Positions 1 to 10,354 of a stretch of 64,000 bases of DNA are shown here, in pieces. Origin of the DNA: Pseudomonadota bacterium. Lineage in GTDB: Bacteria > Pseudomonadota > Gammaproteobacteria > Steroidobacterales > Steroidobacteraceae. The stretch covers positions 1,417 through 65,416 of the forward strand of contig JAFEDS010000013.1 in assembly GCA_018241505.1 (NCBI GenBank). Reading direction: 5' to 3'. The notes beneath the pieces were generated by a model. It worked only from the letters and a program-made list of their open reading frames with translations, was not told the DNA's origin and made no database searches. The position numbers were made by a program, and so were the translations under genes. Within the stretch, counting starts at the first letter, position 1. Each line of letters starts with the position of its first letter.

Positions 1-3000
1 CTCCCAGATCTCCCCCTGACCGCCAGCGGCAAGCTCGACCGCCGCGCGCTCGCAACCATGGAGTACGGCGCAGCGCTGCGAGCCTCCTACGAGGCCCCCG
101 TCGGCCCGATGGAAACCGCACTCGCCGACATCTGGACCTCACTGCTGCGAGCACAATCCATCGGCCGCCACGACAACTTCTTCGAGCTGGGCGGCAACTC
201 ACTGTTGCTGGTGCAGTTCATTGACCAGTTGGCGCAACGCGGCTGGCGGATCGAAGCCCGTGAGCTGTTCAATCAACCGACCGTGGCTGCGCTGGCTGCC
301 GTCATCCAAACAGCGACGCCACCGACACGCTCCAGTGCGCCATTGATCGAGTTGAGCCAGGCGCAAAGCGACCGGATTGCCGCTCACGTCACCGGCGGCG
401 CGGCAAACATACAAGACATCTATCCGCTGGTCTCTCTGCAAGAAGGCATGTTGGTCCACCATCGGACCTCCGATCGTGACGCCTACATATTGCGATCCTT
501 GCTCGCCGTCGATAGTGAGCAACTCGTTGAGCGGCTGCTCACCGCGTTGCAATTCTCAGTGGATCGACACGAAGCATTGCGCACGGCGGTGCAATGGGAG
601 GGATTGCCCGAGCCGGTGCAGGTTGTTTGGCGCTCGGCCCAACTGCCGGTTGTGCGGTTGCCCACCACACAGGCTGAGCAACTCTGGAGTCTCGGCCTGT
701 CACCAGTCAATGTCTCGCAGGCACCGATGATGCGAGTACATGTTGCGCGGGATCCTGCGCAACATCGCTGGCTGCTGTTGATACAGAGCCATCATCTCGT
801 ACTCGATCACACCAGCCTCGAGCTGCTGATTGCCGAAGCGCGCGAGCACGTAGCAGGGCGTTCGGGCTCATTGCCGCCGCCCGTGCCATTCCGGGATTTT
901 GTTGCCGACGCACGTGCCGCGAGCGCATCGGCTGCCAACGAGACTTTTTTCCGCGGGATGCTTCAGAACGTCGACGAGCCAACCGCGCCCTTTGGAATCC
1001 TTGAAATCCGTGGTGACGGCTCGACAATCGAAGAAGGCCGGTTAGAGCTTCCTGCCGTGCTCGCGAACCGGGTGCGTGACCTGGCGCGCCGCTTCGGTGT
1101 AGCCGCTTCCAGTCTGTTCCATCTCGCGTGGGCGATGTTCCTCGCCAGGACCAGTTCGCGTGACGACGTGGTGTTCGGCACCGTTTTGGCCGGCCGGATG
1201 CACCGCGGTCTGGACGCACATCAGGCGTTCGGCCTCTATATCAACACTCTGCCGCTGCGTTTGTCCTTGGCTGACAAAAATGCGGCCGCGGCCCTGCGGG
1301 AAACGCACGCTTGTCTCAGCGAGCTATTGCGCCACGAGCACGCGTCACTGGCAGCCGTCCAGGCATTGAGCGGGGTGCCCACTGGCACGCCGTTGTTTTC
1401 GACACTATTCAACTATCGCCACGATCCTCATGGAACAACTTCCGCGCAGGCGGTCGAGTTGCTGCCCGGCGTCACATTCTTGCGAGGTGAAGAGCGGACC
1501 AACTACCCGCTCAGTCTGGCAGTAGATGACCTGGGTCAGGGTTTCAATCTGACAACACACGCGGTAGCCGGAATCGGCGCGCATAGAACGTGTCAGTTTG
1601 TATTGGCCGCCTTGGAGGGCTTGACGCAGGCGTTGGAAGAGGGCGCTGACACGGACCTGCGGCTCCTGCCGGCTATACCTGCTGCTGAGTCGGAGACCGT
1701 CTGGAGGTGGTCGCGCAATCAGGCGCCCGCGCTGCAACCGAGGACGTTCACAGATCTGTTTGAGTCTGAGGTAGATGAAACCCCCGACGCGGTGGCAGTG
1801 GTGAGCGGCAATCGAAGCCTCACCTATCGCCAGCTCGACGAACGCGCGAACGCAGTGGCGCAGCGCCTCATTGAGCGCGGCGTCGGATCAGAGGGCGTTG
1901 TAGGCTTGTGGGCCGATCGCTCCTTGGAGATGTTGATCGGCCTGCTGGGTATTTTGAAAGCGGGCGGCGCATACCTGCCGCTCGATCCCGCGTATCCAGT
2001 CGACCGGTTGCATCTGATGTTGGCGGATGCGCAGCCGATCCTGTTGTTGGGCAGCCACGAGTTCGAATCACACCTCCCGTGTCTGGCGATCGACTCGACA
2101 GTTCAGGCCAAGCGGCCCGGCCGGCTAGTGCATACCAATACCCCCGCGTACGTCATCTACACCTCCGGCTCCACGGGCACCCCCAAAGGTGTCGTGGTCA
2201 CGCACACCGGTTTGAATGCCTTGGTCAGCGCGCAAGACGACCGCCTGAAAATCACCCGGCACTCGCGCGTCCTGCAATTTTCGACCCTGAGTTTCGACGC
2301 CTCTGCGTGGGAACTGCTGATGGCTCTATCCAACGGCGCAACACTGGTGCTGACTCCCGCGGATGCGGTCAGCGGCGAGCCCTTGCGTAAGCTGCTGGTC
2401 GAACAGCGCATCAGTCATGCGACGTTGCCCCCGGCTGTGTTGGCGACTTTGGCAAAGACAGATGACCTGACACTGGAATGCCTGGTTGTCGCCGGTGAAG
2501 CGTGTCCTCCGGTCTTGATTGCGCAATGGAGCCCGGGACTTCGATTCATCAACGCCTATGGCCCAACGGAGGCCACGGTCTGCGCGACCATGAGCGCTGC
2601 GTTGCAAGGAGACGGCACCGCACCGATCGGCTCTCCCATCAACGGCACCGATGTGTATGTGTTGGATGCCGCCTTGGAACCCGCTCCCGTAGGGGTACCG
2701 GGTGAGTTGTATATCAGTGGCGCGGGACTTGCCCGCGGCTATTTGAAAAACCCGGGACTGACTGCGTCCCGGTTTGTGGCCGACCCCTACGGTGAGCCGG
2801 GCAGCCGGATGTACCGCAGCGGCGATCTGGTCCGCTGGCGTGAGGATGGCTCACTGGAATATCTGGGCCGCGTCGACCAACAGGTCAAAGTGCGTGGTCA
2901 GCGTATCGAATTGGGAGAAATTGAGGCCGCCCTGACGACCTACCCAGGCATCGAACAGGCGGCCGTGGCCGTTCGCGATGGAGAAGGTACGGGCCCGGCG

Positions 3001-6000
3001 CTGGTGGCCTACGTCGTGACCCGCGCGCCCCACGCAATCGACCTGACGGACCTCCGCCGCGCCCTGGTCGCCCGCCTGCCTCAGTACATGATCCCCTCGC
3101 TGTACGTGCCTCTGCCAGAGCTACCCCTGACCCCCACTGGCAAAGTCGATCGACGCGCGCTGCCAGCCCCCGAGGCAGCCCTCCAACAGGACGCGTACTA
3201 CGAAGCGCCCGACTCAGCGACCCAGGTGAGCCTCGCAGCTATTTGGCGCGATGTTCTCCGGCTCGAACGCGTAGGTAAGCGCGATGACTTTTTCGCATCC
3301 GGCGGGCACTCCCTGCTGGCGCTACAAGTTGTCGCCCGCGTGCGTGACGTATTTCGTCTGGAGCTGCCGCTCAAGACACTGTTTGACGCGCCCACGCTGG
3401 AAGCTTTGTCCGCCGAAATCGACGCGATGTTGGCGGATGGTGGCGCACGAGACAGCACCGAAATCGTTCCCTTGAACTGGGATGGCCGACCTGCACCCCT
3501 GTCTTATTCGCAGGAGCGCATGTGGCTCATCCAGACACTCAATCCCGCCAACACCGCGTACAACATGAGCGCGGCGCTGCGAGTTCGCGGCAACGCGGAC
3601 GCGGCTGTATTGTCGGCCGCCTACGATGAACTGTGCCGGCGGCACGCAATCCTGCGGTCCCGGGTCCGCATGAAAGACGAGCGCCCGCAGGTGTGGATTG
3701 AACCGTTTGTCGCAGGAAATCTGATTGTCGAGGACCTCAGCGGCCAGCCCGACGCGGACTCAGCCGCGCTCGAACGCGTCAATACCGAATTGCGCCGCGT
3801 GTTTGATCTGGGTGTCGAGCCGGTTATCCGCGCGCGACTGATCAAGGTCGCGCCCGACTCATATGTATTTGGCATCGTGCTGCATCACATTGCCGGCGAT
3901 CAGTGGTCGATGGGTCTGTTCGGCCGTGAGCTGGCATTGCTGTACAACCAACACAGGTCCGCGGGCAGCGCCGTACTGGAGCCACTGCCCGTCAGCTACA
4001 TGGACTACGCCCATTGGCAGCGCAGTGGCACATCGCAGGCTCAGTACGCCACGCAACTGGCTTTCTGGAAGGAGAAACTGGCGAATCTGCCGACTGTGGA
4101 CCTGCCGACCGATCTGACTCGTCCGAAAGTCTGGACCATGAACGGCTCGTCCTACCAGAGGACGATTCCGCCGCAGCTTTTCGCTGGTCTGGGCGCGCTG
4201 GCCCGCAACGCCGGCAGCACCCTGTTCATGACTCTTTTCGCCGGCTTCGCCTCGCTGTTGCAGCGCATCTCTGGACAGACCGACCTGCCGATCGGCGTCC
4301 CGGTGGCCAACCGCACCCACAGTGCCATCGAAGGCCTGATTGGCACGTTCGTCAACACTATCGTCCTGCGGGCCGACCTGCAGGGCGATCCGGAATTCCG
4401 CGAGCTTTTGGCCCGGGTTCGCGCTACTGCCCTGGATGCGTTTGCCAACCAGGATGTGTCATTCGACCGCCTGGTGCAGGAGATCGGTCAACGCGGTGAC
4501 CGCAGCCGCGCGCCGCTCGTGCAGGTGCTCTTCAATGTAACGAATGCACCGATGCGCGATATCGCACTATCCGGCTTGACCTGGGAGCCTGTGCTGCTGG
4601 ATCGCGGCGGCGCTCAGTTTGAGCTCAGCTTCGGTGTGGACACCGAGGTCACTCGCACGGTCACGGTCGAATTCAACACCGACCTGTTTGAACGGAGCAC
4701 GGTAGAGCGCCTGGTAGGCCAGTATTTTACAATTCTGGAAGCCGCGGTCGCCGCACCCGAAACCCGCATCAGCCGCCTTCCCACGTTGCCCGCGGAGCAG
4801 TGGGCGAACCTGCAAGCCTGGAATGCCACCACCGTTGCATGGCCATCGGATCCTTTCCCGAGATTGTTCGAAGCCCAGGCAGCGCGCACCCCGGACAACG
4901 TGGCCGTCAGTTTCGAAGGCGACTCACTGAGCTATGCCGAGCTGAATTCGAGGGCCAATGCGTTGGCTCGTGCTCTGGTAACCGCTGGCACCGTAGGCGT
5001 GTGCATGCAGCGCTCACCCCAGTTGCTGATCAGCTTGTTGGCGGTGCAGAAGGCAGGTGCTGCGTACATACCGCTCGACCCTGAGTTCCCGGCCGAGCGC
5101 CTGACCTACATGCTGTCGGACAGCGGTGCCACCGTACTGCTCACTTCTGGGGTGCTACCGCAAGGACTGGAGGTGCCAGCCGGCATCGATGTCATCGACG
5201 TGACCGCCACGCGCGGGCAAGTCGGGAACCTGCCGCACGCACCGGCTCCGCAGGATGCAGCGTATATCCTGTATACCTCCGGCTCCACTGGCAAGCCGAA
5301 AGGGGTTGTCGTTCCGCATCGCGCGTTGGCCAACTTTCTCAACTCCATGCGCGAGCGGCCCGGACTGTCAGCTTCGGATGTGCTCGCAGCGGTTACCACG
5401 GTGTCGTTTGACATCGCCGGTCTGGAGCTATATCTGCCCCTGATGGTGGGGGCCCGTATCGAGTTGGTTCCCAAGCAGGTGGCGACCGATGGAACCGAGC
5501 TGGGCCAGTTTCTGGAAGCCCGTGGCGCAACGGTCCTGCAGGCAACTCCGGCTACCTGGCGCATGTTGATTGAAGCAGGCTGGCAAGGTAGCGGGCGCCT
5601 TCGCGCGCTGTGCGGCGGGGAGGCGGTTTCCCGTAGCCTCGCCAACGATATACTGGCGCGTGTTGGCGAGCTGTGGAACATGTACGGTCCGACCGAAACC
5701 ACCATCTGGTCGACCGTGGAGCGAATAGAGCGCGATGGCGCGGCTATCACGATCGGTCGGCCCATTGCCAACACGCAGGTCTACATTCTGGATGCGGCGG
5801 GCGAGGTTGCGCCGATTGGAGTGACCGGCGAGATTTGTATCGGCGGAACCGGCGTTGCCACCGGCTATCACCGGCGCCCGGCTCTCACGGCTGAACGCTT
5901 CACGCCCGACCCACATGCCGCCGATGGTGCGCGCCTGTATCGAACGGGTGACCTGGGCCGTTGGGGTGCCGACGGTAAGCTCTATCACCTGGGTCGCTCG

Positions 6001-6570
6001 GACACCCAGGTCAAGATCAGGGGCTTTCGCATTGAGTTGGGAGAAATCGAAAAGGCGTTGTCCGCGCATCAGGCTATTCAGCATGCGGTCGCTGCGGTGC
6101 GGGAGGCTGGACCGGATGACCCGCGACTGGTCGCGTACGTGACCGGTCGCGAAGGTGAGGAGGTGACCATCACGGACCTGAAGCGCTTCCTGCGCAACCA
6201 GTTACCGGACTACATGATCCCCTCCATCATTGTGACGTTGGTGTCCATGCCGCTCACGCCCAATGGCAAGGTGGACCGCAACGCGTTGCCGGATCCTTTT
6301 GGCAACCAACCCATGGAGCCGGTGGTTGACGAATTACCCGCCACTGCCATGGAACGGGTTGTGGCGGATGCCTGGAAGGCGGTCCTCAAAGTCGACCGCA
6401 TTCGCGCCGCTGACAACTTCTTCGAATTGGGTGGCTACTCGCTGCTGTCGCTGCGGGTCGCCAGGATGATTGAGAAGCAGACCGGGCGCCGTCTGGACCC
6501 GCGCACGCTGTTCTTTCACAACTTGCGCGATGTTGCGAAAATCCTCGACCCCGAGGACCCGAGCGCGTAA
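1..6570 (+). CDS. Non-ribosomal peptide synthetase, 3' part (A-end)-PCP-C-A-PCP-C-A-PCP
   Basis: This is the C-terminal part of a multimodular NRPS. The frame is already open at base 1, where the first codons read as the A10 motif (LTASGKLDR) of an adenylation domain cut by the left edge, so the ATG at 58 is not the start. Order seen: PCP (GGNSLL, nt ~193), condensation domain (HHLVLDH, nt ~791), adenylation domain (YTSGSTGTPKG at nt ~2158; TGKVDR near nt 3140), PCP (GGHSLL, nt ~3301), condensation domain (HHIAGDQ, nt ~3882, with Q where G is usual), adenylation domain (YTSGSTGKPKG, nt ~5272; NGKVDR near nt 6262), PCP (GGYSLL, nt ~6430). The protein stops just after the last PCP, with no thioesterase, reductase or terminal condensation domain. 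By alignment to PheA the specificity residues of the two full A domains read roughly DAWTVAAVC (Phe-like) and DILQCGMIW (Gly-like); this is inference by eye. The stop overlaps the next gene's start (TAATG). Confidence 0.95.
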   Translation, partial: LPDLPLTASGKLDRRALATMEYGAALRASYEAPVGPMETALADIWTSLLRAQSIGRHDNFFELGGNSLLLVQFIDQLAQRGWRIEARELFNQPTVAALAAVIQTATPPTRSSAPLIELSQAQSDRIAAHVTGGAANIQDIYPLVSLQEGMLVHHRTSDRDAYILRSLLAVDSEQLVERLLTALQFSVDRHEALRTAVQWEGLPEPVQVVWRSAQLPVVRLPTTQAEQLWSLGLSPVNVSQAPMMRVHVARDPAQHRWLLLIQSHHLVLDHTSLELLIAEAREHVAGRSGSLPPPVPFRDFVADARAASASAANETFFRGMLQNVDEPTAPFGILEIRGDGSTIEEGRLELPAVLANRVRDLARRFGVAASSLFHLAWAMFLARTSSRDDVVFGTVLAGRMHRGLDAHQAFGLYINTLPLRLSLADKNAAAALRETHACLSELLRHEHASLAAVQALSGVPTGTPLFSTLFNYRHDPHGTTSAQAVELLPGVTFLRGEERTNYPLSLAVDDLGQGFNLTTHAVAGIGAHRTCQFVLAALEGLTQALEEGADTDLRLLPAIPAAESETVWRWSRNQAPALQPRTFTDLFESEVDETPDAVAVVSGNRSLTYRQLDERANAVAQRLIERGVGSEGVVGLWADRSLEMLIGLLGILKAGGAYLPLDPAYPVDRLHLMLADAQPILLLGSHEFESHLPCLAIDSTVQAKRPGRLVHTNTPAYVIYTSGSTGTPKGVVVTHTGLNALVSAQDDRLKITRHSRVLQFSTLSFDASAWELLMALSNGATLVLTPADAVSGEPLRKLLVEQRISHATLPPAVLATLAKTDDLTLECLVVAGEACPPVLIAQWSPGLRFINAYGPTEATVCATMSAALQGDGTAPIGSPINGTDVYVLDAALEPAPVGVPGELYISGAGLARGYLKNPGLTASRFVADPYGEPGSRMYRSGDLVRWREDGSLEYLGRVDQQVKVRGQRIELGEIEAALTTYPGIEQAAVAVRDGEGTGPALVAYVVTRAPHAIDLTDLRRALVARLPQYMIPSLYVPLPELPLTPTGKVDRRALPAPEAALQQDAYYEAPDSATQVSLAAIWRDVLRLERVGKRDDFFASGGHSLLALQVVARVRDVFRLELPLKTLFDAPTLEALSAEIDAMLADGGARDSTEIVPLNWDGRPAPLSYSQERMWLIQTLNPANTAYNMSAALRVRGNADAAVLSAAYDELCRRHAILRSRVRMKDERPQVWIEPFVAGNLIVEDLSGQPDADSAALERVNTELRRVFDLGVEPVIRARLIKVAPDSYVFGIVLHHIAGDQWSMGLFGRELALLYNQHRSAGSAVLEPLPVSYMDYAHWQRSGTSQAQYATQLAFWKEKLANLPTVDLPTDLTRPKVWTMNGSSYQRTIPPQLFAGLGALARNAGSTLFMTLFAGFASLLQRISGQTDLPIGVPVANRTHSAIEGLIGTFVNTIVLRADLQGDPEFRELLARVRATALDAFANQDVSFDRLVQEIGQRGDRSRAPLVQVLFNVTNAPMRDIALSGLTWEPVLLDRGGAQFELSFGVDTEVTRTVTVEFNTDLFERSTVERLVGQYFTILEAAVAAPETRISRLPTLPAEQWANLQAWNATTVAWPSDPFPRLFEAQAARTPDNVAVSFEGDSLSYAELNSRANALARALVTAGTVGVCMQRSPQLLISLLAVQKAGAAYIPLDPEFPAERLTYMLSDSGATVLLTSGVLPQGLEVPAGIDVIDVTATRGQVGNLPHAPAPQDAAYILYTSGSTGKPKGVVVPHRALANFLNSMRERPGLSASDVLAAVTTVSFDIAGLELYLPLMVGARIELVPKQVATDGTELGQFLEARGATVLQATPATWRMLIEAGWQGSGRLRALCGGEAVSRSLANDILARVGELWNMYGPTETTIWSTVERIERDGAAITIGRPIANTQVYILDAAGEVAPIGVTGEICIGGTGVATGYHRRPALTAERFTPDPHAADGARLYRTGDLGRWGADGKLYHLGRSDTQVKIRGFRIELGEIEKALSAHQAIQHAVAAVREAGPDDPRLVAYVTGREGEEVTITDLKRFLRNQLPDYMIPSIIVTLVSMPLTPNGKVDRNALPDPFGNQPMEPVVDELPATAMERVVADAWKAVLKVDRIRAADNFFELGGYSLLSLRVARMIEKQTGRRLDPRTLFFHNLRDVAKILDPEDPSA

Positions 6571-7250
6571 TGAACCCACTGTTCATTGGCACCGCCGAGC
6601 GCAGACTATTCGGGCTGTATGAGCCTGCGGCCGCCACGCGTGGCAAGCCGCGGGCGGTGGTTCTATGCTATCCCTGGGGAGTGGAGTACACCTACGCGCA
6701 CCGCTCAATGCGGCAACTGGCGTCCAGGTTGGCGGCGGCGGGATTTCATACTCTGCGCTTCGATTACTTCGGTACCGGGGACTCCTCGGGAGAAGTGGAT
6801 CAGGCAAATCTCAACGGTGCCGGTTCCGATGTCGAGGCGGCCATTGAAGCGTTGCAAGACATTGCCGGAACCTCCAGGGTTGTGTTGATCGGCTTGCGGC
6901 TGGGTGCAAATATTGCCCTGAGTGTGGCGGTTCGACGCAAGTCCGCGGTGGAAGCATTGGTGATGTGGGATCCGATCATTTCGGGTGATCATTACGTGGC
7001 GGCCTTGCCAGCGGGCAGTGATGTCGGCGAGGATGTGCTGCGCGAGATCCGCTCAATCGACTTGCCATCGAGCCTGCAGGGGATTCCTGAACGCACGATG
7101 ATACTGGTCACTGAGCGCTTGGCCGCCCACGAACAACTGGGGATGCCCGTCGAGTTTGTCAGCGCCGCCTGCCCCTGGGTGGAGGCGATTACGATTTCGG
7201 GTGCCTTGCCGGTACCCGCCATGCAGCGGATAGAAGAATGGCTGCGGTAG
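6570..7250 (+). CDS. Alpha/beta-fold hydrolase, exosortase-A-associated hydrolase 2-like
   Basis: A 226-residue alpha/beta-hydrolase-fold protein. The N-terminal half has the strand and loop pattern typical of the fold (VVLCYPWG, then LRFDYFGTGDSSGE). The nucleophile elbow reads G-L-R-L-G, so the expected Ser/Cys is replaced by Arg, and no clear Asp-His pair is visible near the C-terminus. The GLRLGA signature and short length resemble, from memory, the family called exosortase A system-associated hydrolase 2. It may be a non-catalytic partner or use different chemistry. The start overlaps the NRPS stop by one base and the end overlaps the next hydrolase by 13 bases, so the genes are probably co-translated. 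A role in releasing or editing the NRPS product is inference. Confidence 0.85.
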   Translation: MNPLFIGTAERRLFGLYEPAAATRGKPRAVVLCYPWGVEYTYAHRSMRQLASRLAAAGFHTLRFDYFGTGDSSGEVDQANLNGAGSDVEAAIEALQDIAGTSRVVLIGLRLGANIALSVAVRRKSAVEALVMWDPIISGDHYVAALPAGSDVGEDVLREIRSIDLPSSLQGIPERTMILVTERLAAHEQLGMPVEFVSAACPWVEAITISGALPVPAMQRIEEWLR

Positions 7251-8092
7251 AGTTTACGTACAAGGAGCAGGCAGTCCTGCTTGGCCGGCATTCGCTCGTC
7301 GGCATCGTCACCCGTCCGCCGCCGGCCCGGCAGAAAGAAGAGCCGGCCATTGTCATTCTCAACACCGGGATTGTGCACAGAGTCGGGCATCATCGAATGT
7401 ACGTCTCCCTGTCGCGCGATCTGGCGATGAGCGGACGGACGGTGGTGCGATTCGACTTCGCCGGTATCGGTGACAGCAAGCCGCGCAAGGACAGCACATC
7501 ACCGCTGATGGCGAGCCTGTCGGATATCCGCGAGGTGTTGGACACCCTGGAGAAGTCCAATGAGGTGAAGAAGTTCATTCTCGTGGGATTGTGCTCGGGC
7601 GCCGATCACGCCGTGCTGTATGCCAATACGGATCCGCGCGTGGTCGGGTTGGTTCTCATGGATCCGACGTTGCCGCCGACCTTGCGCTACTACGTTCACT
7701 ATGTGATGCAGCGGCTGAAAAACCTCCGCAATTGGATGAGTGTGGCGACCGGTCGAAGCGGCCTCATGCGGCTGGCATCCACTCACCTGATCAACAGCGT
7801 GCGCCCGCAGACGGAGCTCGAGGGCCTCAACCTGCAGAACCTGCGTTTCAGCTCCCATCTGCCCCAGTGTTATCGCGGTGCGGCGGCACGGGATGTGCGA
7901 ATGCTGGCGGTGTTCACTTCCGTTTCGGTTCGTCATACCTATAAACAGCAAATGTTGGATGCCTTCCCGGAGGCCTCCGCCGGCGGCAAGCTGCGCCTGG
8001 AGTTCTTTCCGGAAAGCGATCACCTGTTCTCCGGTGAGAAAGAACGCTTCCGTTTGCGTACTGTGATCGGCGACTGGCTCGACTCGCGCTGA
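7238..8092 (+). CDS. Alpha/beta-fold hydrolase, exosortase-A-associated hydrolase 1-like
   Basis: A 284-residue alpha/beta hydrolase. Visible motifs are NTGIVHRVGHHR near residue 47, VVRFDFAGIGDS near residue 67, an elbow G-L-C-S-G near residue 120 that puts Cys in the nucleophile position, and a C-terminal PESDHLF that can supply the catalytic His. This combination matches what I recall of exosortase A system-associated hydrolase 1. A Cys nucleophile is also known in dienelactone hydrolases. The gene starts inside the preceding hydrolase gene, and the flippase ATG follows 7 bases after its stop. With a TE-less NRPS upstream, acting in trans on a PCP-bound product is a reasonable hypothesis, not shown by the sequence. 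No exosortase or PEP-CTERM protein lies in this window. Confidence 0.87.
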   Translation: MAAVEFTYKEQAVLLGRHSLVGIVTRPPPARQKEEPAIVILNTGIVHRVGHHRMYVSLSRDLAMSGRTVVRFDFAGIGDSKPRKDSTSPLMASLSDIREVLDTLEKSNEVKKFILVGLCSGADHAVLYANTDPRVVGLVLMDPTLPPTLRYYVHYVMQRLKNLRNWMSVATGRSGLMRLASTHLINSVRPQTELEGLNLQNLRFSSHLPQCYRGAAARDVRMLAVFTSVSVRHTYKQQMLDAFPEASAGGKLRLEFFPESDHLFSGEKERFRLRTVIGDWLDSR

Positions 8093-8099
8093 GGGCGAC

Positions 8100-9425
8100 A
8101 TGAGCGCTCAGCCTGATTCGCAGCCGGCCCCCGCGGCCCGCGTCTTGCGCAACACCAGCCTGCTGGTCATCGCTCAGGTCATTGTTACTCCACTCTCCAT
8201 TCTCATCAATGCGGTCGCGGGCCGCACCCTCGGCGCCGCGAGCTTCGGCCTGTTGTACCAGGCCTTGACGTTCAGCTCGTTGGTATTTCTGTTTGTGGAG
8301 TGGGGGCAGTCGAACGTACTGACCGGCAGAGTAGCCAGGCAGCAAACGGCAGCCGGCGAGTTGCTAGGCAGCGGCATCCTTCTGCGCGTGACGGCCGCTG
8401 CGGCGGCTCTGGTTATTGTCCCGCTCGTGTGTGCGCTTGTGGGCTATGACAGGGAATTCCTCGTTGTCCTCGAGCTGGCGATGCTGGCCGCAACGTTCGC
8501 CACTGTTTCAGCCGCCTGCCAGGATGTCTTTCGCGGCTATGAGCGTACCGACTTCGCTGCAGCGTCCTATGTCGGTTGGCAGTTGTTGAGTGCGGCTGTA
8601 GTCATCCCAACGCTGCTCGCCGGCGGCGGCCTGCGAGGACTGCTCGTTGCTCAAGTCTCCTGCGCCGCGTTCGGCATGTTGTTCGTCCTGAAAATGCTGC
8701 CCCGCATGCAAGTTCCTAAACTTGTGGTTCGCCGCGCCGTTGCCCGGGAGCTGTTCCGTTCCGGTCATCCGTTCATTCTGTTCGGTCTCGTGATTCTGCT
8801 GCAGCCCATGGTCGATGCCGCCATGCTGTCCAAATTTGCCGCCCCCGCGAGCATGGGTTGGTACGCGGCGGCCAGAAAGCTCGTCGGGATCTTGATTTTC
8901 CCGGCATCCGCTTTGATTGCCGCGTTGTATCCAACTCTGTGCCGCCTGTATGCCGAGAATCGGAATGCCTGGCGCAAGACCGCGGGCGATGCGCTGTTTG
9001 GGGTTTCCCTGGTGGTCATTCCCGTGGCTCTGGGCTGCGGGTTGTTTCCGGAAGTGGGCGTAGCCATCTTCGGGCAGCGCGATTTCGGCCCCGCCGCCGA
9101 CGATCTGCGGCTCCTGGCGCCCTTTGTGTTCCTGGTCTATTTCAGCATGGTCATTGGCTCCTGCCTGGTGTCCTCCGGCCGCCAGAACGGTTGGACTGTG
9201 GTGCAGTTGGGGTCCGTTGTCATCAGTGCGGCTCTCGACCCACCGCTCATCAGTTGGTTCCAGGCTCATTACGCCAATGGTGGCCTCGGAGTGTGTACTG
9301 CCGCGGTAATCAGTGAGGTCCTCATGGTTACGGGCGGCTTCCTGCTGTTGCCGAAAGGGATCCTCGCCAGCATTCCCCGCGCGAGCGTTGGCCGCTTCTG
9401 GGGGCTGGTACGCAGGCGCACGTAG
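8100..9425 (+). CDS. Polysaccharide flippase / oligosaccharide translocase (Wzx/MATE-like)
   Basis: A 441-residue integral membrane protein with about 12 hydrophobic segments and few long loops, in the pattern of the MOP/Wzx polysaccharide exporters. The N-terminal motif (RNTSLLVIAQVIVTPLSIL, then GRTLGAASFGLL) is typical of the family's first two helices. Such proteins flip lipid-linked glycans across the inner membrane. A GAGGG stretch before the ATG is a plausible ribosome site. Being coupled to an NRPS and two hydrolases suggests that the transported unit is, or carries, a peptide or aminoacyl group. The substrate cannot be read from the sequence; a peptide or lipopeptide exporter role is the main alternative. 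Confidence 0.9.
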   Translation: MSAQPDSQPAPAARVLRNTSLLVIAQVIVTPLSILINAVAGRTLGAASFGLLYQALTFSSLVFLFVEWGQSNVLTGRVARQQTAAGELLGSGILLRVTAAAAALVIVPLVCALVGYDREFLVVLELAMLAATFATVSAACQDVFRGYERTDFAAASYVGWQLLSAAVVIPTLLAGGGLRGLLVAQVSCAAFGMLFVLKMLPRMQVPKLVVRRAVARELFRSGHPFILFGLVILLQPMVDAAMLSKFAAPASMGWYAAARKLVGILIFPASALIAALYPTLCRLYAENRNAWRKTAGDALFGVSLVVIPVALGCGLFPEVGVAIFGQRDFGPAADDLRLLAPFVFLVYFSMVIGSCLVSSGRQNGWTVVQLGSVVISAALDPPLISWFQAHYANGGLGVCTAAVISEVLMVTGGFLLLPKGILASIPRASVGRFWGLVRRRT

Positions 9426-9505
9426 CAGGAGCCCGATATGACATGCACGGTCATTGTGAAAATAACAAAGGCCCCTGGCGTGGGGACAGTGCAGAATGGG
9501 CCGCG

Positions 9506-10354
9506 ATGCAGGTCTACGCGATATCGGATGTTCATGCGGATTTCCGCGACAACCTCTGGCAGCTCGAGCAGTTGCCGCGGCACAACTATGCGGCGGATGC
9601 GCTCATTGTTGCGGGAGATGTGAGCCACGAGCCGGAGGTCCTGCGCAGGACTTTCGATATCTTCCTCGAGCGATTTCGCGAGGTGTTCTTCGTTCCCGGC
9701 AACCACGAACTGTGGATACGGGAAGGACAACACGCGAGCTCTGTGGAGAAGTTCCAGGAAGTGCTGCGGCTGTGCCATTCGCTCGGCGTGCATACGGGGC
9801 CGGAAGTCGTCGGCTCCGGTGAAGACCGGGTATGCGTCGTGCCGTTGTTCTCGTGGTATACGCGGCCCGGTGAAGGCAGTGACAGTTTGTTTCGCGAGCG
9901 CCCGATGCAGGAGCCGGCGGAGTCCGTATGGGCTGATGACTACCTGGTGAAATGGCCCAGGAGCGGCGGTTTCCGGCCAGTGCAATATTTTCTGGATCTG
10001 AATGCCGAGCGCCTGAATGGCGCCTACCGGCACGGCAACCGGATTTCCTTCAGTCATTTCCTGCCGCGGCAGGACTTGATGTTTGCGGCGCGCGGGGAGC
10101 TGCCCCCTGCCGCGCCGGATCCCGGGCGGGCGCTCTTCAATTTCTCAACCGTGGCCGGTTCCAGCCTGATTGATGAGCAGATCCGGCAGTTGGGGTCACG
10201 GCTGCATGTGTATGGACACCAACACCGCAATCGCCGGCGGTTGTACGACGGTGTCTGGTATGTATCCAACTGCCTCGGATATCCGGAAGAGCGGCGCGGC
10301 AGGGTCATTCAGGACCCGGGCGACATCCTGCAATCGGTGTGGCCGCTGGTCTGA
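9506..10354 (+). CDS. Metallophosphoesterase
   Basis: A calcineurin-like metallophosphoesterase of 282 residues. The dinuclear metal site motifs are visible in order: SDVHADF (D-x-H), VAGDVSH (GD), VPGNHELW (GNHE) and a C-terminal YGHQHR (GHxH). The ATG at 9506 puts the first beta strand (QVYAISD) at the N-terminus, as in the family. An in-frame ATG at 9443 lies 11 bases after an AGGAG and would add 21 residues without family character, so the start is not settled. It lies 80 bases downstream of the flippase on the same strand and may belong to that operon. Its phosphoester substrate is unknown. Confidence 0.88.
   Translation: MQVYAISDVHADFRDNLWQLEQLPRHNYAADALIVAGDVSHEPEVLRRTFDIFLERFREVFFVPGNHELWIREGQHASSVEKFQEVLRLCHSLGVHTGPEVVGSGEDRVCVVPLFSWYTRPGEGSDSLFRERPMQEPAESVWADDYLVKWPRSGGFRPVQYFLDLNAERLNGAYRHGNRISFSHFLPRQDLMFAARGELPPAAPDPGRALFNFSTVAGSSLIDEQIRQLGSRLHVYGHQHRNRRRLYDGVWYVSNCLGYPEERRGRVIQDPGDILQSVWPLV

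What the first reader, a model, noticed from the sequence alone, without database searches (positions are those of the whole stretch)
1..9425. NRPS coupled to two exosortase-A-type hydrolases and a Wzx-like flippase
Four genes overlap or abut in one operon: a multimodular NRPS without a release domain, two alpha/beta-hydrolases carrying the GLRLG and GLCSG elbows I associate with exosortase-A-system hydrolases 2 and 1, and a polysaccharide flippase. Such hydrolases are known from EPS/exosortase loci rather than ordinary peptide antibiotic clusters. The set suggests a peptide or aminoacyl group built on carriers, handled by the hydrolase pair, and flipped as part of, or attached to, a lipid-linked surface glycan. 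No exosortase is in view.
Basis: partly seen in the sequence, partly recalled or inferred. Interest (0 to 1): 0.7.

Follow-up and report, generated by a model that had tools for sequence, protein, structure and literature searches.

The report
Two-part release enzyme for peptide synthetase
A bacterial peptide-making enzyme that lacks the usual release domain is followed by a conserved pair of proteins, one with a cysteine active site and one without a working nucleophile, which probably do the releasing, and the same pair turns up in surface-coat gene clusters where its job has been unknown.

Summary
The four-gene operon is real. The NRPS continues left of the window, probably onto another contig, and reads as three modules with a starter C domain and no thioesterase (TE). 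The hydrolases are sub-threshold relatives of exosortase-A hydrolases 2 and 1 (91 and 90 bits; cut-offs 202.75 and 168.45). The genome has no exosortase match.

In 83 homologous pairs the order is always hydrolase 2 (HydA) then 1 (HydB); HydB keeps Cys and His in all, HydA has Arg at the nucleophile position in all. In 69 of 83 loci carrier-protein chemistry is in view: a free ACP, an NRPS, or an amino acid--[ACP] ligase. In six NRPS proteins HydA is fused behind the last carrier domain, where a TE would be. The other three NRPS loci of this genome have a TE and no pair. Thirteen of 22 terminal modules before the pair carry a glycine code.

Best reading: a split off-loading unit that releases or transfers an N-acyl peptide ending in glycine, with a MOP flippase for export. 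Whether the acceptor is water, a lipid or a glycan is open; a surface-glycan target is hinted at by relatives, not shown.

The parts
1..6570 (+). NRPS, C-terminal 2189 aa in the window: end of A1, T1, C2-A2-T2, C3-A3-T3, no TE. The gene continues left onto C4:1-1416 and, by a 24-base identity of contig ends, probably onto contig C7 (N-terminal C domain).
118..306 (+). carrier domain T1 (PP-binding, best-scoring stretch, residues 40-102)
3493..4809 (+). condensation domain of the last module (residues 1165-1603)
4867..5871 (+). adenylation domain of the last module (residues 1623-1957), pocket positions DILQLGMIW = glycine code; the best solved match to its pocket region is 4zxh (E 4.5e-44)
6427..6444 (+). 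LGGYSL phosphopantetheine motif of T3; the motif starts 47 residues before the end of the NRPS, so there is no room for a TE
6570..7250 (+). HydA, alpha/beta-hydrolase fold, TIGR03101-like, with Arg110 at the nucleophile position (presumed pseudoenzyme)
6897..6899 (+). codon of Arg110 in the GLRLG elbow (Arg in 83 of 83 homologues)
7238..8092 (+). HydB, alpha/beta-hydrolase fold, TIGR03100-like, Cys nucleophile
7592..7594 (+). codon of Cys119 in the GLCSGAD elbow (Cys in 83 of 83)
8021..8023 (+). codon of His262, presumed catalytic His (His in 83 of 83)
8100..9425 (+). MOP/Wzx-like flippase (PF01943, PF13440); 41% identical to a paralogue at G000:C1:18286-19755

Best explanation
The operon makes and exports a short N-acylated peptide. 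A three-module NRPS (starter C-A-T, C-A-T, C-A-T) links an acyl group, two residues with Phe-like codes and a final glycine, and leaves the product as a thioester on its last carrier domain because it has no TE. HydA and HydB together replace the TE. HydA, which has Arg where the nucleophile should be and so is unlikely to be a normal hydrolase, docks on or presents the carrier domain. HydB uses its Cys (with the invariant His) to take the acyl-peptidyl-glycine off the phosphopantetheine arm and passes it to water or to an acceptor amine/hydroxyl. The MOP flippase then moves the lipopeptide, or a lipid-linked molecule carrying it, to the periplasmic face. Shown from sequence: gene order, domain order, absence of a TE, invariant Cys/His and Arg, fusion of HydA behind the last carrier domain in relatives, recurrence next to carriers, glycine code. 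Inferred: the C7-C4 join, complex formation, chemistry, acceptor, flippase cargo.
For: (1) TE swap inside one genome: the window NRPS has no PF00975, while the other three NRPS loci found by PF00668 in G000 each have one, and TIGR03100 finds the pair only at the window locus apart from two weak matches elsewhere. (2) HydA is fused behind A-T of an NRPS in six proteins of five genomes (L068, L071, L072, L074, L078, L108), i.e. in the TE position, with HydB the next gene in all six. (3) In 11 of 11 pair-linked NRPS proteins scanned with Pfam there is no PF00975; in the 11 others with the NRPS directly before the pair, the carrier motif starts 44-97 residues from the stop. (4) A carrier or A-domain gene is directly upstream of, or fused to, 55 of 83 hydA/hyd2 genes, against 11 of 950 other genes in the same loci; of the 28 others, 10 are fused HydA-HydB loci, 9 of which have a relative of an amino acid--[ACP] ligase nearby (one checked over the NCBIfam cut-off). 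(5) Cys and His in 83 of 83 HydB/hyd1, Arg in 83 of 83 HydA/hyd2, same order in 83 of 83. (6) Glycine code at the last A domain in 13 of 22 loci with the NRPS directly before the pair, 14 with one near match, against 1 of 11 upstream A domains (2 with one near match). (7) N-terminal C domain closest among solved chains to RzmA-Cs, an N-acylating starter domain.
Against: No biochemistry and no structure of the pair with a carrier. The acid of a classical triad is not conserved (the Asp142 position is Asp in 18 of 25 NRPS-type, Asn in 35 of 35 ACP-type and 10 of 10 AACPL-type). Loss of a catalytic His in HydA is not shown: the HydA-HydB profile alignment covers only the N-terminal half. In 3 of 25 NRPS-type loci the NRPS follows the pair or is about 2 kb away (L064, L161, L149). 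Thirteen 'other' loci have no carrier next to the pair. Nine of 22 terminal modules lack the exact glycine code, and common descent of the modules could explain the glycine trend. Hydrolase_4 is below Pfam's gathering score in three of the fused proteins (L068, L078, L108) and absent in L074; there HydA rests on TIGR03101 and my own profile. The HydB model is only moderately confident (mean pLDDT 75.7), and both models match mostly esterases and lipases (the thioesterase DcsB is among HydB's hits). A flippase is in view in only 10 of 25 NRPS-type loci.
Confidence: 0.55

Rival explanations
1. The pair is an editing (type II) thioesterase: it clears wrongly loaded or stalled carrier domains, and the finished peptide leaves by spontaneous cyclisation or another enzyme.
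For: Stand-alone alpha/beta-hydrolases near NRPS genes are usually of this kind (recalled). The pair also occurs beside free ACPs and amino acid--[ACP] ligases, as an editing enzyme might.
Against: The pair sits where the TE is missing and is not found at the three TE-bearing NRPS loci of the same genome; HydA is fused behind the final carrier domain in six proteins. Editing TEs use a Ser nucleophile and are not known to need a dead partner (both recalled).
Confidence: 0.2
2. The pair is an acyl/peptidyl transferase for surface polymers: HydB moves carrier-bound glycyl or peptidyl-glycyl groups onto a lipid-linked sugar, which the flippase then exports.
For: G684 has Bac_transf, Poly_export, GT2 and GNAT genes within about 14 kb of the homologous set; the same GNAT and GT2 have relatives (39% and 44%) beside the paralogous flippase at C1 of the window genome; G805 has GT2 and Gfo/Idh/MocA genes beside its copy; several ACP-type loci have FemAB-like or O-ligase-like genes.
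Against: No glycan-assembly gene was identified next to the window operon, though only the first gene to its right (metallophosphoesterase) and the divergent gene on C7 (no Pfam match) were scanned. In 15 of 25 NRPS-type loci no flippase was in view.
Confidence: 0.25
3. The operon is a satellite of an exosortase/PEP-CTERM system, as the hydrolase names suggest.
For: Best NCBIfam matches are TIGR03101 and TIGR03100.
Against: Scores far below cut-off; 0 exosortase matches in a 93.9% complete genome; 3 of 11 NRPS-type genomes have an exosortase against 25 of 26 ACP-type genomes; the tree puts the pair with NRPS/AACPL types, apart from ACP types.
Confidence: 0.03
4. The flippase is an unrelated neighbour and only NRPS plus pair form the unit.
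For: Only 10 of 25 NRPS-type loci have one in view, and the window's flippase is not the orthologue of its sister's (among 13 other flippases it has a BLASTP match at 1e-5 only to the C1 paralogue).
Against: It starts 7 nt after HydB on the same strand; 6 of the 9 loci in the window's own clade have a flippase beside the set, of at least two lineages, which looks like repeated recruitment or replacement; 3 of 4 NRPS loci of this genome have one nearby.
Confidence: 0.15

Closest known systems
TIGR03101 / TIGR03100, hydrolases 2 and 1, exosortase A system-associated
   Same: Same superfamily and order (hyd2 then hyd1), same Arg (hyd2) and Cys (hyd1) at the elbow, and a carrier protein directly upstream in most loci (free ACP there, T domain here).
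   Different: Window pair scores below both cut-offs, lies on the other side of the tree, has an NRPS where loci such as L086 have ACP, ligase and PLP decarboxylase, and no exosortase in the genome.
NRPS C-terminal thioesterase (PF00975) and type II TE
   Same: Position directly behind the last carrier domain, alpha/beta-hydrolase fold.
   Different: Two proteins, Cys nucleophile plus an Arg pseudoenzyme, no PF00975 match.
amino acid--[acyl-carrier-protein] ligase operons (NF005479)
   Same: Carry a HydA-HydB homologue, fused into one protein of about 580-690 aa.
   Different: A tRNA-synthetase-like ligase charges the carrier; no NRPS seen there. That such ligases charge carriers with glycine or alanine is recalled, not from a call.
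Wzx/MOP flippases (NF041871 Wzx_EPS, PF01943, PF13440)
   Same: Pfam domains over cut-off.
   Different: 64.2 bits against a cut-off of 800 for Wzx_EPS, and partnered with an NRPS.
Cys-nucleophile thioesterases of NRPS such as obafluorin ObiF (recalled)
   Same: Cys instead of Ser in an NRPS off-loading hydrolase (recalled).
   Different: ObiF's TE is a domain in cis and has no pseudoenzyme partner (recalled).

Membership tests
TIGR03101 hydrolase 2 (HydA) | score over curated cut-off 202.75 bits | tested here: not met
   91.1 bits
TIGR03101 hydrolase 2 (HydA) | Arg at the nucleophile elbow, followed directly by hydrolase 1 | tested here: met
TIGR03100 hydrolase 1 (HydB) | score over curated cut-off 168.45 bits | tested here: not met
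   90.4 bits
TIGR03100 hydrolase 1 (HydB) | Cys nucleophile and His | tested here: met
Exosortase A / PEP-CTERM system | exosortase (PF09721) in the genome | tested here: not met
   0 matches in G000
Exosortase A / PEP-CTERM system | PEP-CTERM proteins in the genome | not tested
   not searched
NRPS gene cluster | C, A and carrier domains in modular order | tested here: met
NRPS with C-terminal TE | PF00975 at the C-terminus | tested here: not met
Lipopeptide NRPS | N-terminal starter C domain | tested here: inconclusive
   closest solved chains 7c1k/7c1h, E about 4e-64 to 6e-64; 7C1H is RzmA-Cs; no subtype model or assay, and the C7-C4 join is inferred
Wzx flippase of EPS (NF041871) | score over cut-off 800 bits | tested here: not met
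   64.2 bits
Polysaccharide flippase superfamily (PF01943/PF13440) | score over gathering cut-off | tested here: met
   62.4 over 28.2 and 50.2 over 23
Thioesterase-type off-loading enzyme | hydrolysis or transfer of carrier-bound acyl groups | not testable with these tools
   needs assay

The most novel reading that the evidence does not exclude
A catalytic Cys hydrolase and an obligate Arg pseudohydrolase form one ancient, general off-loading or transferase module for carrier-bound (amino)acyl groups, often ending in glycine. NRPSs use it instead of a TE, amino acid--[ACP] ligase operons use it as a single fused protein, and exosortase-A/EPS loci use it with a free ACP; in all of them it serves to put acyl or peptidyl groups on molecules bound for the cell surface. 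'Exosortase A system-associated hydrolases 1 and 2' would then be mis-filed by their neighbourhood.
Probability: 0.35. Interest if true: 0.8.

Novelty: new variant of a known kind. Interest (0 to 1): 0.6.

Why it matters
If true, it gives a function to two 'hypothetical equivalog' families of EPS loci, adds a two-protein, Cys/pseudoenzyme solution to the ways NRPSs let go of their product, and explains how TE-less NRPSs of this kind work. Genome-mining that looks for a TE would miss such release units. One in-vitro off-loading assay would test the idea for NRPS, amino acid--[ACP] ligase and exosortase contexts at once.

Tried and rejected
Exosortase link: tested and rejected for this genome. 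Membership in TIGR03100/TIGR03101: rejected by cut-off. Chance neighbourhood: rejected. SglT (NF058544, weak match to both hydrolases): in PMC9108774 the word hydrolase does not occur in the main text, and the passages shown describe no operon like this (12 of 37 places shown); dropped as a lead. Structure search: Foldseek returns mostly generic alpha/beta-hydrolases for both models, and the sequence profile of HydB finds esterase-like and MHETase/OsmC-type chains; no help on substrate. I first took Trp203 of HydA for the place of a lost catalytic His; the profile alignment does not reach that far, so the claim is withdrawn. His187 of HydA, invariant in the 8-row alignment, is not conserved in the larger set (H in 6 of 25 NRPS-type rows, and in the MAFFT columns of that set not even in all of the window's clade). 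The pocket code was read at nine positions; the tenth (Lys) was appended by my script, not read, and L007's code was read by eye from text printed. Phe-like reading of modules 1 and 2 (DASTIAAVC, DAWTVAAVC) rests on recalled codes. Literature (search listings only, unless said): (0 papers; 4; 0; five listed, none with the phrase 'exosortase A system-associated'; 5; 12 of 29 listed; 15 of 28 listed) showed no title or abstract start describing the hydrolase pair with an NRPS; only open-licence papers are held. Known link found: N-acyl amino acid synthases beside PEP-CTERM/exosortase genes (Craig et al. 2011, known to me through the passage citing it in PMC7293339, and a reference in PMC11511702; the paper itself is not held). 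PMC1569441 (PEP-CTERM/EpsH, 2006): a term search found no mention of hydrolase, ligase, carrier or decarboxylase. PMC9850573 (floc formation, passages only): no hydrolase mention.

Context labels (25 NRPS, 35 ACP, 10 AACPL, 13 other) were assigned by me. The collection was made by similarity searches for these very families, so conservation counts hold for homologues found that way. For the '69 of 83' in the summary: 55 + L064, L161, L149 with an NRPS in view + L088, L153 with an ACP in view + 9 AACPL loci; L059, L061 and L063 of the 'other' group, which have ACP- or ligase-like hits farther off, are not counted. In the exosortase comparison (genomes plus own) G214 is counted as NRPS-type although it also has an ACP-type pair; 'other' and AACPL genomes, and genomes, were left out. 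All 51 genomes with a match were searched for exosortase (50, own). For '1 of 11 upstream A domains' partial domains and loci L064, L149, L161 were left out; L070's first domain (DILQMGMVW) is the near match.
Full report
What is there. The window begins inside an NRPS gene. ORFs 1-6570, 6570-7250 (HydA), 7238-8092 (HydB) and 8100-9425 (flippase) lie on the plus strand with overlaps of 1 and 13 nt and a gap of 7 nt. The window is contig C4:1417-65416 of a 7.88 Mb genome in 46 contigs, 93.9% complete. The same NRPS frame runs to the start of C4, across a run of Ns at C4:1318-1416. The first 24 bases of C4 equal the reverse complement of the start of contig C7, and the frame continues; C7 gives a 477-aa piece starting with Met that matches one C domain. 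Next on C7 are a 165-aa ORF overlapping the NRPS start on the same strand, a divergent ORF without a Pfam match, and further genes that I did not scan. So the NRPS most likely reads C-A-T-C-A-T-C-A-T and starts the operon. The joining of C7 and C4 is my inference. The N-terminal C domain of an orthologue in G805 (3821 aa, three A domains found, with an extra stretch between the first two) is 50.5% identical to the C7 piece over 459 residues, which supports it.

No TE, a pair instead. Pfam finds no Thioesterase in the window NRPS, and the last carrier motif starts 47 residues from the end of the protein. The other NRPS loci of this genome (C4:286-292 kb, C14:24 kb, C42:429 kb) each have a PF00975 domain. 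TIGR03100 finds the pair only here, apart from two weak matches. This is a clean complementary pattern inside one genome, though of only four loci.

The hydrolase pair as a family. HydA's best NCBIfam match is TIGR03101 (91.1 bits, cut-off 202.75) and HydB's is TIGR03100 (90.4, cut-off 168.45). A search of genome contigs with HydB gave 7 relatives, all 7 with an NRPS gene ending at a hydA-hydB pair. TIGR03101 in 369 genomes of the class gave 51 with a match at 1e-12, 23 over the cut-off. HydB's profile gave 13 of 398 genomes in the phylum sample (at 1e-25) and 44 of 217 in the family (at 1e-20). I fetched surroundings of all matches and of a part of those, and sorted 83 pairs: 25 with an NRPS, 35 with a free ACP (for example L086, with TIGR03098 and TIGR03099 over cut-off), 10 in amino acid--[ACP] ligase type operons, 13 others, 8 of which have a flippase, FemAB-like or O-ligase-like gene in view. 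In all 83, hyd2/HydA precedes hyd1/HydB: 71 as separate genes, 12 fused. Hyd1/HydB has Cys at the nucleophile and His at the catalytic His position in 83 of 83, and hyd2/HydA has Arg at the nucleophile position in 83 of 83; a profile comparison of the two puts Arg and Cys in one column. The acid position is not conserved, so I do not claim a standard triad.

Carrier proteins are the common denominator. A carrier or A-domain gene lies directly upstream of, or in the same protein as, hydA/hyd2 in 55 of 83 loci, against 11 of 950 other genes in the same loci. That control uses the same loci, not random genomes. The 28 without are 10 AACPL-type, 13 other, 3 NRPS-type and 2 ACP-type loci. In the AACPL type the pair is one protein, and a relative of the amino acid--[ACP] ligase of L106 (426.7 bits over a cut-off of 357) is nearby in 9 of 10 (L069 is the exception). 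In the NRPS-type L064 and L161 the NRPS follows the pair, and in L149 it is about 2 kb away. In L088 and L153 the ACP is a few kb off. Six NRPS proteins carry HydA behind their last carrier domain: C-A-T-HydA in L068 and L108, A-T-C-A-T-HydA in L071, A-T-HydA in L072, L078 and L074. Pfam's own hydrolase match is over its cut-off only in L071 and L072, below it in L068, L078 and L108, and absent in L074; the HydA assignment rests on TIGR03101 and my profile. HydB is the next gene in all six. This places HydA in the TE position.

Tree and exosortase. In a tree of HydA and HydB side by side (quick method, SH-aLRT only), 24 NRPS-type and all 10 AACPL-type rows with 4 others fall on one side, and 35 ACP-type rows, 9 others and one NRPS-type row on the other (support 99). 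The window pairs with L006 (99) in a clade of nine NRPS-type rows (99). The odd NRPS-type row, L079, sits among ACP rows, so the NRPS link probably arose more than once (several rows have long branches). Exosortase (PF09721) is absent from the window genome. It is present in 3 of 11 NRPS-type and 25 of 26 ACP-type genomes (Fisher p 3.5e-5; genomes are related, so p is a guide).

The product. At nine pocket positions the last A domain reads DILQLGMIW. A 2025 survey reports DILQLGMIWK as shared by four glycine-activating domains (PMC12283262, passages only). The pattern DILQLG[LM][IV]W is at the last A domain before the pair in 13 of 22 loci (12, L007 by eye), plus DILQIGVIW in L077. The rest are DIVQIGGIY (L010-L012), DIEHxTAV (L072, L074, L078), DFFSFGCVF (L070) and AVGEIGVLD (L079). 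Of 11 upstream A domains in the same loci, 1 has it and 1 comes near. Modules 1 and 2 read DASTIAAVC and DAWTVAAVC, which I take as Phe-like from recalled codes. The first C domain is closest among solved chains to 7c1k/7c1h (E about 4e-64) ahead of CDA synthetase (1e-42). 7C1H is RzmA-Cs, an N-acylating starter domain (PMC7804268, passages only). I therefore expect an N-acyl-aromatic-aromatic-glycine thioester on T3.

Export and the surface link. Flippases are in view in 10 of 25 NRPS-type, 7 of 37 ACP-type, 0 of 10 AACPL-type and 6 of 15 other loci (there L109 and L111 count as ACP, and L075 and L107 as other; fetched stretches differ in length). So a flippase is not a general companion of the pair. 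In the window's own clade it is 6 of 9. Among 13 other flippases the window's has a BLASTP match only to its C1 paralogue (41%), so it is not the orthologue of the one in its sister L006. In this genome three of four NRPS loci have a flippase nearby (C4:9.6 kb, C4:279 kb, C14:21 kb; 10 PF13440 matches in all), and C14 also has a Bac_transf gene. In G684 the homologous set lies within about 14 kb of a GNAT, a GT2, a Bac_transf and a Poly_export gene. The GNAT and GT2 are 39% and 44% identical to two genes that stand beside the paralogous flippase at C1:15.2-19.8 kb of the window genome. This makes a surface polymer a reasonable guess, but a lipopeptide flipped as such explains the window operon with fewer parts.

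Judgement. The pair is best seen as a two-part off-loading unit in place of a TE (0.55). Not excluded, and more novel, is a general carrier-off-loading or transfer module shared by three pathway types (0.35). I rate the find a new variant of a known kind, because off-loading by alpha/beta-hydrolases is known, while the Cys plus Arg-pseudoenzyme pair in this role did not appear in the paper searches I ran (listings, open-licence papers only).

Noticed in passing
L028 (G000:C4:278001-297000): A second NRPS-flippase run of the same genome: NRPS of 3166+ aa and 1236 aa with TE, then PAF-AH-like hydrolase, PMT_2-matching protein, a 312-aa protein without Pfam match and a Polysacc_synt_3 flippase, all on one strand.
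   Followed up: partly
L026 (G000:C14:14001-34000): Third NRPS-flippase neighbourhood: a 1789-aa NRPS with TE, a 688-aa protein with a carrier domain near its end, a flippase and a Bac_transf sugar transferase.
   Followed up: partly
L004:15244-19755 (G000:C1): GNAT (Acetyltransf_6), GT2, PhyH and a flippase in a row; the GNAT and GT2 have relatives near the NRPS-pair-flippase set of G684. Possibly the missing half of the window pathway.
   Followed up: partly
L106:172-8528: Run of acyl-CoA-dehydrogenase-like protein, amino acid--[ACP] ligase, a 323-aa protein, a beta-galactosidase-like protein of 829 aa, fused HydA-HydB and a methyltransferase; variants with some of these genes in L069, L076, L166-L171 and L176. 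Its product is unknown to me.
   Followed up: partly
L079:9059-13641: The highest-scoring TIGR03101 hydrolase (290 bits) lies in a genome without exosortase match, next to a 903-aa NRPS (partial C, A, T) instead of a free ACP.
   Followed up: partly
L003:1318-1416: Run of Ns directly left of window base 1: a scaffold gap inside the NRPS A1 domain.
   Followed up: yes
window 9443-10354: Metallophosphoesterase-like gene after the flippase, same strand, 17 nt downstream; best NCBIfam match TIGR03729 below cut-off. Could be part of the operon.
   Followed up: no
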